NCBI GenBank assembly: GCA_022571215.1
Contig: JACZYG010000014.1
Location: 1 to 64,000 of the forward strand
Reading direction: 5' to 3'
Length of the DNA: 64,000 nt
Source of the DNA: Fidelibacterota bacterium
GTDB lineage: Bacteria > Fidelibacterota > SORT01
Shown here: positions 3,421-25,543 of the stretch, piece after piece
How the letters are laid out: the number at the start of each line of letters is the position of its first letter
How positions within the stretch are numbered: position 1 is the stretch's first letter
Made by a program: the position numbers and the translations under genes
The notes under the pieces: generated by a model
The model's input: only the letters and a program-made list of their open reading frames with translations
Told to the model about the DNA's origin: nothing
The model's database searches: none

Positions 3421-4062
3421 AATTCCCCTCTACTAAGAGGGGAGTACTCCGTAGGAGGGAGGGGTGTAATTATTCCTTAAAGTTAATACTAGGAAGTAAT
3501 AAAGATAACACCCTCCGTCACTTTGTGACACCTCCCTCGAGGGAGGAGGCTTGAATTCCCCTCTATCAACCAGCCCGACATCGGGCTGGCGGGGAAGGGT
3601 GTTCCGTAGGAACTCCTATGGAGGATTCGAGACACAATAGTATCGAGAAGACGGGGTGTGTCAAGAATTATATCATTCAGCGACATTATCCTTAATCCAT
3701 TCATCATAAAAAGAACTGCTTCATAAAGATTATTCCGTTGAGCAGAAAGAGCTCATTACACACCCCAGCCTTTTGCTATAAGATTTCTTAAGGATTGGCT
3801 ACCCCTCTTGATAGAGGGGAATTGTTGTGCTCTCCCCTTGAGGGAGGTGGAACGGAGGTCGCCCACGAGGCCGATAATGCGGATTGAGGTTTAGGGTTTA
3901 CTCGCTACCGTCATTGCGAATCCGCCAGCTGGCGGATGTGGCAATCTCAGATCTTTATGCAGCAGGTAAAATCGTTATATACGAAATCAACGTTCCGAGA
4001 TTGCCCGCCTGACCAATGTCGGGCAGGCTTCGTCGTGTATACACCACTCCTCGCAAAGACAC
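3421..4062. repeat. Palindromic repeat mosaic between dnaE and the SPOR gene
   Basis: This 800-base gap has no supported gene. In order it carries CCCCTCTactaAGAGGGG with TACTCCGTAGGAG (3421-3470), GTCACTTTGTGAC plus CTCCCTCGAGGGAG (3507-3550), CAGCCCGACATCGGGCTG (3570-3591), and a 66-bp module from 3756 to 3822. The 66-bp module has a near-identical inverted copy at 24315-24380. A longer unit (about 3911-4062) contains ATCCGCCAGCTGGCGGAT, CAATCTCAGATC and an ACTCCTCGCAA end; it is shared with about 5262-5362 and 24629-24744. Confidence 0.85.
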
Positions 4063-22178: not shown

Positions 22179-22652
22179 CTATAAAACTATCTTTTCGGCG
22201 AGAGCCGCTAATTGCTCTTCGGTCAACTGTTCATCGTCCGAACTCTTCTTGTCCAGCTCTCCCGGATCCCAAATCTCTATTTGTTTCAACATTCCGATAA
22301 TAACAGCCTCATTGCTCAGGCCTGCAACTTCTAAAAGGCTTTTAGGTATTGTGATCCTCCCCTGGCTGTCATACCTGCAAATGGTAGCGTACCGTGTCAA
22401 ATCTCTAAGCCATTTCTGGTCTATCGGGTTCATGCGAAGGAGTTTTTTCGTCAGATTATCTTCGAATATGGACCAATCTTCAAACGGCATGGCGACAAGG
22501 CATTTGTCCTTCGCGATACTCTTTGAAAGGACAAAAGTCCTGTTATTCGCAGGATGCAGTACTTTTCTGAAAGGGGCAGGCACATTGACCCTGCCTTTTT
22601 CGTCTATCGTGTACCGATATTCGCCTAAAAATGAATTTGGCTCTGGTGTCAT
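22179..22652 (-). CDS. mraZ: Transcriptional regulator MraZ
   Basis: About 157 residues with two MraZ/SpoVT-AbrB domains: FLGEYRYTIDEKGRVNVPAP near the N-terminus and YATICRYDSQGRITIPKSLL in the second half. MraZ binds tandem TGGGT-type boxes upstream of its own gene and represses the dcw operon. The longer frame to 22715 would start within the predicted -10 element, upstream of the transcript start, so the ATG at 22652 is chosen. An in-frame GTG directly before it is an alternative. Confidence 0.92.
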   Translation of the reverse strand: MTPEPNSFLGEYRYTIDEKGRVNVPAPFRKVLHPANNRTFVLSKSIAKDKCLVAMPFEDWSIFEDNLTKKLLRMNPIDQKWLRDLTRYATICRYDSQGRITIPKSLLEVAGLSNEAVIIGMLKQIEIWDPGELDKKSSDDEQLTEEQLAALAEKIVL

Positions 22653-22693
22653 CACCTTGTCGCTTATTATTATAGTTAAAAAATTGGGCTTTA

Positions 22694-22738
22694 ACCCACT
22701 ATTACCCCATAACATACACTATTACCCATTGATGTCAA
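22694..22738 (-). promoter_or_regulatory. mraZ promoter with embedded MraZ boxes
   Basis: On the minus strand a TTGACA (22738-22733) is followed after 16 bp by TATGTT (22716-22711). Four pentamers recur at exactly 10-bp steps: TGGGT (22728-22724), TGTAT (22718-22714), GGGGT (22708-22704) and TGGGT (22698-22694), with AATAG repeated as spacer between the first two and the last two. This matches the known TGGGN-N5 MraZ operator layout and overlaps the core promoter, consistent with autorepression. Confidence 0.8.
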
Positions 22739-23029
22739 GGAAAATATTCAATTTATTCGAATCTACTTTAAGTTAAACCGCTCTGACCCTTATATGATAA
22801 AGGTTAGAGTAAATCATCTTTTTTTAGGTTTACTTGAATTGAAAGGGGGAATTACCCAATATTGCTACAGTAACCCGCCCGCACCTAACGGAGTTGTTTA
22901 ACTACATTCTGCGTGTGGAGAACTTTTATACATAGATATTGTATTGGTGGCGATTATATGGGGTGGAAGTGGGGGGTGCCAATAACTCTTTACTTTTTAT
23001 GTACGGTCAGGGCTTCGGAAGATTCTGCG

Positions 23030-24016
23030 TTAATTGTCAAGTGATAATCGTTCATAATCAGGATCGAAGAGTATTTGATTTTTCAATACTCCAATGACAA
23101 TGTGAAGCAGTCTTCTCATACAAGCAGCCACCGCCACCATCTTAGGTTTTCCTTTAGATATTAGTTTCATGTAGAACCGACTGATTATGGGATTATATCT
23201 GATGGCAGCTAATGTCGGCATAAATAGAGCGGCTCTCAACCTTCTGTTACCTGTCTTACACAGTCTGCTCTTTCCCTTGCGCATACCGGATTGCCTTTCA
23301 CTTGGCGCCAGACCGGCGTGGGCTACCTGCTTCTTTGGCTCAAGACTCCCGTTTATCTCGCTAAGTAAGATTCCGGCAGTGAGATCTCCTATTCCCGGAA
23401 TAGATGTCAACAGTTCTTTGTTCTTTTTAAGGTCCGGGTGGTTATCCAGATGCTCTCCTATTTGCTTTTTTACCTTTTCGATCTGCTTGTCGAATGATTT
23501 AATCATCTGCTTAACAGAGGACTTGATAACCGGAGTCTTCGCAGACTCAAGGTAGCTCATCTCATCGGCCCGTTTACGGATGAGATGATCCAGATGCCGG
23601 GTCAATGCCCTTAACTCGCGCACATCTTCGGCAAGAGCAGGCGTAGGAGAAGGTTTATGTGTTGCCATATATCGGGCGATCATTCGGGCATCAACACTAT
23701 CGTTCTTTGTTCTGATCAACTGAGACTGGATAAATCGTTTTACCTGGATAGGATTGAGCAGACTGATCTCAAAATCAGTGTGCATCCTCATCCACTCTAC
23801 CATCTCTGTTTCGTATCCGCCGGTGGATTCTATGCCCATATGGACAGCGTCTGCTTTGCAGCGAGACTTCTCTTTCAGCACCCAGCTCTTGATTTCATTC
23901 CACCCGCGTCTGTTGTTGCCGAGTTTCTTAGACGAACGTTTGATAGAACCATCGGACGATTCGATAGCGCTCGCGAAGTCATGCTTTGCCATGTCGATAC
24001 CAAGATACAACTTCAT
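23030..24016 (-). CDS. IS110-family transposase (RuvC-like DEDD plus Transposase_20)
   Basis: 328 residues. The N-terminal DEDD RuvC-like domain has LGIDMAKHD (Asp7), MGIESTGGYE and KNDSVDARMIARY, supplying the expected acidic residues. A coiled linker (about 130-190) leads to the C-terminal domain with IPGIGDLTAGILLSEI and HAGLAPSERQSG, including the catalytic Ser region, then KTGNRRLRAALF. The length is typical and the frame intact, so the enzyme may be active. IS110 recombinases are directed by an RNA encoded in the element's end; the candidate lies directly upstream. Confidence 0.95.
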   Translation of the reverse strand: MKLYLGIDMAKHDFASAIESSDGSIKRSSKKLGNNRRGWNEIKSWVLKEKSRCKADAVHMGIESTGGYETEMVEWMRMHTDFEISLLNPIQVKRFIQSQLIRTKNDSVDARMIARYMATHKPSPTPALAEDVRELRALTRHLDHLIRKRADEMSYLESAKTPVIKSSVKQMIKSFDKQIEKVKKQIGEHLDNHPDLKKNKELLTSIPGIGDLTAGILLSEINGSLEPKKQVAHAGLAPSERQSGMRKGKSRLCKTGNRRLRAALFMPTLAAIRYNPIISRFYMKLISKGKPKMVAVAACMRRLLHIVIGVLKNQILFDPDYERLSLDN

Positions 24017-24039
24017 CTTTTACCCCCATTCTTTAACGT

Positions 24040-24205
24040 CTCTCCTCAACGAACCACCCAGTCCTTCCCGTTTCTTATCTTGCTCATGCAGGGTCAACAG
24101 CCCTTAGATTCTGCCCAGATTTAACCGGAAAGCGGGCGGGAGCCAATCTTCCGAACAGGTTCACAGACCTAGGAGTCCAAGCCGGCTTCAATCCGCCCGG
24201 AGATA
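24040..24205 (-). ncRNA. Candidate IS110 bridge RNA
   Basis: Noncoding region 5' of the transposase, transcribed with it on the minus strand. Two stem-loop domains are visible. The 5' loop is closed by CGGGCGG/CCGCCCG (24199-24193 with 24139-24133) and contains an AGGT/ACCT hairpin. The 3' loop contains AGGG/CCCT (24104-24101 with 24093-24090). TTCGGAAGATT in the 5' loop (24155-24145) equals plus-strand bases 23014-23024 at the target side of the right junction. GCAGAATCT in the 3' loop (24114-24106) equals the element end at 23028-23020. The order fits right-target guide then left-donor guide. Left-target (AGTCC, five bases) and right-donor guides are weak or unassigned. Confidence 0.65.
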
Positions 24206-24302
24206 TACGTCTTATTGCTGTTATAAATAACATCATAATATACAAAAATTCTAACAAACGATAACATACAAGGAGTTTAGGCAATTAGTCCCCTAACCCG
24301 CA

Positions 24303-25083
24303 CGAGTCCGATAATTCCCCTCTATCAAGAGGGGTAGCCGATCCTTTAGAAATCTTAAAGCAAAAGGCTGGGGTGTGTAATAGAGATATATGATAAAAAT
24401 TTGACGCGTTTTGCAACTGACAACTTCTGACACACCCCGTCTTTTATCCCGAACAATCGAGATAAAATCCTCCGTAGGAGTTCCTTCGGAACACCCCTCT
24501 TGATAGAGGGGAATTACGCGCATCAGAGATGCGATGTGCGCGAGTCATCCCGAAGCTTCGGGATGACACACCGCATAACCACATTATAAAGGCGTCAGGA
24601 CAAGTCCTGACTGCCACTAAATACTTTGTCTTTGCGAGGAATCCGTCAGCTGACGGATGACGCGGCAATCTCATGCTGATAAAATTAATCTGAGATTGCT
24701 TCGTCGTTTCCTCCGCATTCTTCGGAGATCACTCCTCGCAATGACTGCGAGGTGCGGTCAGGGCCAGCCCGACATTGCTCTGGTGGGCAATCTCAAAATT
24801 TAAATTAACAGATTAGCCTTTACACACCCCGTCTTAGATAATCCGCGATTATCTAATCCACCCCTCTTAATTAGAGGGGAACATAAGGATTTTATTCTTT
24901 GATTTTAAACAACCCCTTTGTCCCCTCCTTAGGAAGGAGGGGATGAAAAGTTCCTCTCCCCTTGAGGGGAGTGTCCGGCTTATGCCGGACGAGGGGTGTA
25001 ATCGTACGATGATAATTATTCTGGAGAGAAGATCAGAATCACACCCTCCGTCACTCCATGACACCTCCCTCGAGGGAGGAGGA
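24303..25083. repeat. Long palindromic repeat mosaic between the IS element and arfB
   Basis: About 800 bases without a supported gene. Modules in order: an inverted copy (24315-24380) of the 3756-3822 module; a CACACCCC-framed module with a TCCCGAACAATCGAGATA insert (about 24431-24514); GCATCAGAGATGC; GTCAGGACAAGTCCTGAC (about 24592-24609); a long unit with ATCCGTCAGCTGACGGAT and an ACTCCTCGCAA end (24629-24744); another framed module whose insert is AGATAATCcgcGATTATCT (24823-24880); CCCCTCCTTAGGAAGGAGGGG; CCCCTTGAGGGG plus GTCCGGCTTATGCCGGAC; and GTCACTCCATGAC plus CTCCCTCGAGGGAG ending at 25083. Confidence 0.85.
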
Positions 25084-25120
25084 TCGAACACGCTCGAAAT
25101 ATCAGAAGCGGCACTGCCGC

Positions 25121-25543
25121 TCAGTCATCATCCTTGACATCACCCCGGAGGCGTTTGACCCTGCCTCTATTTTTCTTATTTTTCAGTCGTTTTTCTATCG
25201 AGGCGCGGGTCGGTTTGGTTTTACGGCGAGGTTTCGGCTTATGAAGCGCTTTAAGGATGAGAGCTTTAAGTCGTTTCAGCGCTTCCTCGCGGTTTTGCGA
25301 TTGTGAACGGGAAGTTCTTGCGTCAAGAACGATAATTCCGTCTGAAGTGACCCTCTTGCCTGCTAATTTCAGCAATTTCGGTTTTATCTCTTCAGGAATG
25401 GAGGTGGAGTTCCGCAGGTCGAATCGAAGTTGAACCGCAGACGCTACCTTGTTGACGTTTTGTCCGCCCGGGCCGGATGAGCGCACGAAGTCGAAGTGGA
25501 GCTCGGAGGATCTGATAGTTATATTTGAGTTTATTTCGAGCAT
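25121..25543 (-). CDS. arfB: Alternative ribosome-rescue factor ArfB (YaeJ-type peptidyl-tRNA hydrolase)
   Basis: 140 residues. The release-factor catalytic domain has the GGQ motif in RSSGPGGQNVNKV (about residues 22-34), and the tail is Lys/Arg-rich (about 105-140) as in ArfB, which enters the empty mRNA channel of stalled ribosomes. The length excludes a canonical RF1 or RF2. It is not obviously co-transcribed: about 140 bp of repeat separates it from the kinase gene. The GGGGTGG nearest its ATG belongs to the repeat module upstream. Confidence 0.93.
   Translation of the reverse strand: MLEINSNITIRSSELHFDFVRSSGPGGQNVNKVASAVQLRFDLRNSTSIPEEIKPKLLKLAGKRVTSDGIIVLDARTSRSQSQNREEALKRLKALILKALHKPKPRRKTKPTRASIEKRLKNKKNRGRVKRLRGDVKDDD

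What the first reader, a model, noticed from the sequence alone, without database searches (positions are those of the whole stretch)
24040..24205. IS110 bridge RNA whose guides match the element's own junctions
Seen: upstream of the transposase, on the same strand, two structured loops. The 5' loop contains TTCGGAAGATT, identical to plus-strand 23014-23024 across the right junction. The 3' loop contains GCAGAATCT, identical to the element end plus core. Known: IS110 bridge RNAs are ordered left-target, right-target, left-donor, right-donor guides, with target loop 5' and donor loop 3'. Inference: the two matches fall in the right-target and left-donor slots in the right order and polarity, with core CT. 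The left-target match is only five bases (AGTCC, 24174-24178 against 24287-24291), and I could not assign the right-donor guide.
Basis: partly seen in the sequence, partly recalled or inferred. Interest (0 to 1): 0.68.

Follow-up and report, generated by a model that had tools for sequence, protein, structure and literature searches.

The report
IS110 element with its bridge RNA
This is a complete, intact-looking IS110-family jumping gene whose own guide RNA carries four short guides that match the element's ends and the exact genomic site it sits in; it is a well-resolved new example of the recently described bridge-RNA system, not a new kind.

Summary
Window 23030-24016(-) is an IS110-group recombinase with all five catalytic residues, and a two-loop bridge RNA lies just upstream at 24045-24202(-). 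The 11-nt match across the right junction is an 8-nt right-target guide plus three handshake bases. The left side was wrong: the left core is 24271-24272, not near 24287-24291. There the left-target guide pairs with the flank over 12 nt (nine Watson-Crick, three wobble). The missing right-donor guide is 24079-24087, AU[GA]GCAAG, the discontiguous layout of IS621. The element is 23022-24270 plus one CT (1,251 bp). Joining the flanks restores a dispersed palindromic repeat found unoccupied four times in the same genome; a second copy of the element (contig end) sits in the same repeat. Three relatives (G237, G145, G241) carry the same RNA with different target guides, each matching its own site and not the others'. 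Sixteen base pairs show two-sided changes against about six in shuffles. The circle junction would form TTGACA-17-TATGTT. Expression and activity were not tested. New member of a known kind; modest interest.

The parts
23022..24270 (-). IS110-group insertion sequence (1,249 bp between the two CT cores)
   Evidence: Ends fixed by four empty copies of the target repeat and a second element copy in the same genome and by relatives' ends
23030..24016 (-). IS110 recombinase (DEDD RuvC-like + Tnp domain), 328 aa, intact
   Evidence: Pfam PF01548 and PF02371 above cut-off; IS621 1.2e-42; D8 E63 D106 D109 S243 match IS621 catalytic residues
24045..24202 (-). bridge RNA body: target-binding loop (5') and donor-binding loop (3')
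   Evidence: covariance model and pair counts on four elements
24219..24232 (-). small hairpin UGUUAUUUAUAACA, possible 5' stem-loop of the RNA
   Evidence: single-sequence fold only; weak
24171..24182 (-). left target guide GCTTGGACTC-CT (guide core 24171-24172)
   Evidence: 12 pairs with the left target, three of them wobble
24157..24170 (-). apical stem-loop of the target-binding loop, AGGU...ACCU
24148..24155 (-). right target guide TTCGGA-AG
   Evidence: 8/8 pairs with CT-TCCGAA of the right flank; each relative pairs with its own flank only
24145..24147 (-). handshake bases ATT after the RTG; complementary to AAT of the donor end
   Evidence: scheme from PMC11208158
24106..24114 (-). left donor guide GCAGAAT-CT
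   Evidence: identical to the right end plus core
24090..24104 (-). apical stem-loop of the donor-binding loop
24079..24087 (-). right donor guide AU[GA]GCAAG, seven pairs with CT-TGTAT, two bases skipped
   Evidence: same scheme as IS621 AUUUGCAAG; compensatory change in G145
24271..24272 (-). left core CT
   Evidence: empty sites
23020..23021 (-). right core CT
   Evidence: empty sites; relatives
24273..24304 (-). left half of the target repeat, containing left target GCCTAAACTC (24273-24282)
   Evidence: matches unoccupied copies L057-L060
23001..23019 (-). right half of the target repeat, beginning with right target TCCGAA (23014-23019)
23035..23040 (-). TTGACA, the -35 half of the predicted circle-junction promoter (right end)
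   Evidence: sequence; 17 bp from TATGTT in the joined circle; inferred function
24263..24268 (-). TATGTT, the -10 half of the predicted circle-junction promoter (left end)
   Evidence: sequence; inferred function

Best explanation
The segment encodes the bridge RNA of a complete IS110-group insertion sequence. After excision as a circle, the joined right and left ends would form a promoter that transcribes the RNA. Its donor-binding loop (LDG 24106-24114, RDG 24079-24087) pairs with the element's own RE-CT-LE junction. Its target-binding loop (LTG 24171-24182, RTG 24148-24155) pairs with a palindromic dispersed repeat, GCCTAAACTC-CT-TCCGAA. The recombinase then joins the two at the CT core by serine-type strand exchange. 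Shown here: the anatomy, the four guide matches, the empty sites, covariation of target guides with sites across relatives, and conservation of the catalytic residues. Inferred by homology to IS621: transcription, RNP assembly and catalysis.
For: IS110 domains and IS621 as best solved relative; catalytic residues conserved; 11-nt and 9-nt junction matches rare in shuffles; all four guides pair in the right slots and polarity; four empty target repeats and a second element copy fix the ends; RTG-by-RT matrix of four elements pairs 6-7 bases on the diagonal and 0-2 off it; 16 pairs with two-sided changes against 6.2 in shuffles; model finds IS621 and other IS110 upstream regions on the right strand; same scheme as published IS621 structure.
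Against: No expression or activity data. Left-target pairing needs three wobbles; LTG and RDG exact runs are at chance length if position is ignored. Donor-loop handshake bases do not pair with the target. In G237 the second core base of the LTG does not pair, and its left target was read from paralogous empty sites. The covariance E-value for IS621 is weak (0.023).
Confidence: 0.95

Rival explanations
1. The guide matches are chance, or a side effect of the palindromic repeat, and the segment is only a 5' leader of the transposase gene.
For: LTG and RDG exact match lengths are at chance level when position is ignored; single-sequence folding is not better than shuffles.
Against: Four elements in four different target sequences each pair with their own site and not with the others'; two-sided changes in both loop stems; empty sites place the junctions exactly where the guides predict.
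Confidence: 0.02
2. One reading: left core at 24289-24290, LTG GGACT pairing with GGGGA-CT.
For: Five-base match GGACT; GGGGACT is also present beside the second copy on contig C8.
Against: All four unoccupied repeats continue through GCCTAAACTC-CT into the right half, so 24273-24291 is target DNA, not element; relatives' left ends start CT-TGTA; the RDG pairs with CT-TGTAT.
Confidence: 0.02
3. A bridge-RNA element that is no longer active: anatomy intact, but not expressed or not mobile in this host.
For: One full copy and one partial copy at a contig end with 92% identity over the matched left end, so no sign of a recent burst; three wobbles in LTG pairing.
Against: Intact ORF, catalytic residues, both ends and all four guides preserved; absent from same-genus genomes at this place.
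Confidence: 0.25

Closest known systems
IS621 of Escherichia coli (IS110 group; Durrant 2024 PMC11208160, Hiraizumi 2024 PMC11208158)
   Same: Recombinase domains and catalytic residues; RNA in the long left end on the recombinase strand; order LTG, RTG, LDG, RDG; CT core; RD CT-TGTAT; RDG AU[NN]GCAAG with two skipped bases; handshake AU after the RTG; insertion in a REP-like palindromic repeat.
   Different: Sequence diverged (phmmer 1.2e-42); different donor left side (GCAGAAT against CAGTAT); different target; RTG pairs six bases beyond the core against two in IS621; donor-loop handshake bases do not pair with this target.
Unnamed IS110 elements of other Neomarinimicrobiota genomes (G237; G145 = JADFRD010000084.1; G241)
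   Same: 76%, 65% and 36% recombinase identity; same RNA architecture; G237 and G145 share the right end GCAGAAT-CT.
   Different: Different target guides and targets: CT-CCTGGAC (end of another transposable element), CT-ATTACA and CT-GACAA. G241 also has a different donor end (CGGTTG) with matching donor guide and handshake bases.
IS1111 group (seekRNA elements, PMC11187229)
   Same: Same DEDD/Tnp recombinase superfamily and RNA-guided target choice (literature).
   Different: IS1111 elements have the RNA in a long right end; here the left end is long (254 bp) and the right end only 8 bp (23022-23029).

Membership tests
IS110 family, IS110 group (bridge-RNA recombinases) | DEDD RuvC-like plus Tnp (Transposase_20) domains with catalytic serine | tested here: met
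IS110 family, IS110 group (bridge-RNA recombinases) | Long left end upstream of the recombinase carrying the RNA, short right end | tested here: met
   left end 24017-24270 (254 bp), right end 23022-23029
IS110 family, IS110 group (bridge-RNA recombinases) | Two-loop RNA structure conserved in relatives | tested here: met
   four elements, 16 pairs with two-sided changes; bias noted because the structure came from these sequences
IS110 family, IS110 group (bridge-RNA recombinases) | LTG, RTG, LDG and RDG pair with target and donor around a shared core | tested here: met
IS110 family, IS110 group (bridge-RNA recombinases) | No terminal inverted repeats; insertion shares only the core with the target | tested here: met
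   flanks join at CT to the empty repeat without further duplication
IS110 family, IS110 group (bridge-RNA recombinases) | Covariance model relates the RNA to IS621's bridge RNA | tested here: inconclusive
   IS621 found in the right place and strand, but E = 0.35 with R1 and 0.023 with R2
IS110 family, IS110 group (bridge-RNA recombinases) | Promoter formed across the RE-LE circle junction | tested here: inconclusive
   TTGACA-17-TATGTT present in sequence; transcription not tested
IS110 family, IS110 group (bridge-RNA recombinases) | RNA-guided recombination activity | not testable with these tools
   needs an assay
IS1111 group | RNA encoded in a long right end downstream of the recombinase | tested here: not met
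   right end is 8 bp

The most novel reading that the evidence does not exclude
Within one phylum, close sister IS110 elements keep one donor loop and change their target guides so that each homes to a different, lineage-specific repeat (REP-like palindromes or another transposon's end), with 6-7 nt right-target guides: natural retargeting caught at 65-76% protein identity.
Probability: 0.4. Interest if true: 0.4.

Novelty: new member of a known kind. Interest (0 to 1): 0.3.

Why it matters
It gives a fully resolved natural bridge-RNA element from an uncultivated phylum, with all four guides, both junctions and empty sites. It is paired with sister elements that share the donor loop but carry different target guides. 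That is a small natural experiment in retargeting, and a candidate recombinase with a longer right-target guide than IS621.

Tried and rejected
Rfam scan of the segment and of the target repeats: no family. Viral contigs: no relative. Single-sequence RNA folding: not better than shuffles. MAFFT alignment with distant IS110s was poor, so covariance models were used instead. A left core at 24274-24275 (AAA-CT-CCTTG) was considered first and rejected: the relatives' left ends and the RDG layout fix CT-TGTA. Literature search for IS110 with Marinimicrobia: no paper held. Whether this element is already listed in ISfinder could not be checked.

Full report
What was checked. The window lies in a 2.56-Mb genome of the phylum Neomarinimicrobiota: one of its same-phylum genomes, G145, has a contig of the same length and sequence as JADFRD010000084.1, titled Candidatus Neomarinimicrobiota. 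Shuffled RNA reaches the 11-nt match in 11 of 5,000 trials and the 9-nt match in 122 of 5,000.

The protein. ORF 23030-24016(-), 328 aa, has both IS110 Pfam domains above cut-off. Its best solved relatives are IS621 (1.2e-42) and ISCro4. The IS621 catalytic residues D11, E60, D102, D105 and S241 align with D8, E63, D106, D109 and S243.

The ends. The own genome holds six exact copies of TTGCCTAAACTCCTT; 20 relatives hold none. Four copies are unoccupied: their left halves read GGGG(G/A)(G)CTTGTTGCCTAAACTC-CT and run on into T(C/T)GG.. and a GCCC(T/C)GAC half. The window's flanks, joined at CT, read GGGGACTAATTGCCTAAACTC-CT-TCCGAAGCCCTGACC, the same palindromic repeat. The end of contig C8 carries a second copy of the element's left end after the same left target. 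So the left core is 24271-24272 and the right core 23020-23021. Two same-genus genomes have the same gene neighbourhood without the element; one (G002) has a related repeat, GCGGTCAGGGCTCC...AAGTCCTAACCCGCA, at that place.

The four guides. With these ends: RTG 24148-24155 pairs perfectly with CT-TCCGAA; LDG 24106-24114 equals GCAGAAT-CT; LTG 24171-24182 pairs with GCCTAAACTC-CT over 12 nt, three of them wobbles; RDG 24079-24087, AU[GA]GCAAG, pairs with CT-TGTAT by seven pairs with two bases skipped. The published IS621 structure has the same RDG scheme (A157-U158, two flipped bases, G161:T12, C162-G165) and a wobble in its LTG (PMC11208158). The same assignment on an IS621 locus (L062) reproduces its LTG and RDG pairing, a positive control. 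The donor-loop handshake bases do not pair with the target here. Among the five copies of the repeat whose right half is known, the occupied one is the only one that pairs with the RTG without a mismatch over its six non-core bases.

Relatives. G237 (76% identity), G145 (65%) and G241 (36%) carry the RNA upstream of their recombinase. Right targets are CT-CCTGGAC, CT-ATTACA and CT-GACAA. Each RTG pairs 6-7 bases beyond the core with its own target and 0-2 with the others'. G145's left target pairs 9 bases beyond the core. G237's contig ends exactly at the left core; its left target was read from two paralogous unoccupied sites and pairs over eight bases, including the first core base but not the second. 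G145's RDG compensates a donor change (A to G with T to C), and G241's different donor end (CGGTTG) is matched by its LDG and handshake bases. G145's genome holds three further sites within three mismatches of its joined target.

Structure. On four sequences 93.9% of cells pair, against 39-53% when the partner is slid by 1-3 columns. Sixteen pairs have changes on both sides, against 6.2 in shuffles. The structure was derived from these sequences, so the percentage paired is biased; the two-sided changes are the stronger point. A model from the three closest finds G241 at 1.1e-5. With G241 added it finds upstream segments, on the right strand, of Enterobacter (1.1e-4), Leptolyngbya (0.006), IS621 (0.023) and other IS110 loci; these E-values are rough.

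Expression. In the excised circle the right-end TTGACA and left-end TATGTT would lie 17 bp apart across the core; G241 would have TTGACA-17-TATGAT. Reconstitution of a promoter in the circle is established for IS110 (PMC11208160). Transcription here is inferred, not shown.

Verdict. IS110 targeting of repetitive palindromes and guide-target covariation are already published for thousands of elements (PMC11208160), so this is a new member of a known kind, of modest interest.

Noticed in passing
window 24313-24381; also window 3755-3823 and genomes G001-G004: A dispersed intergenic repeat of about 70 nt (AGCCTTTTGCTTTAAGATTTCTAAAGGATCGGCTACCCCTCTTGATAGAGGGG), 81-97% identical between copies, shared across the family's genomes; no Rfam family.
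   Followed up: partly
own genome C1:341755, C2:6834, C19:59886, C43:68736, C8:48449 and window 24270-24284: REP-like palindromic repeat GTCAGGGCTCCGAAGGAGTTTAGGCAACAAGCCC that is the target of the element; six exact 15-mers in this genome and none in 20 relatives.
   Followed up: partly
window 22179-25543: The element lies upstream of mraZ and the rest of the cell-division cluster, between mraZ and an arfB-like release-factor gene; same-genus genomes keep this gene order without it. Any effect on the cluster's promoter is untested.
   Followed up: partly
L030 (G237 C170 end), L079, L080: The G237 sister element is inserted in the end of another transposable element; the contig breaks exactly at its left core.
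   Followed up: partly
L036 (own genome C28:2930-3910), L037, L038: More distant IS110-like recombinase ORFs (24-29% identity) elsewhere in the same genome.
   Followed up: no
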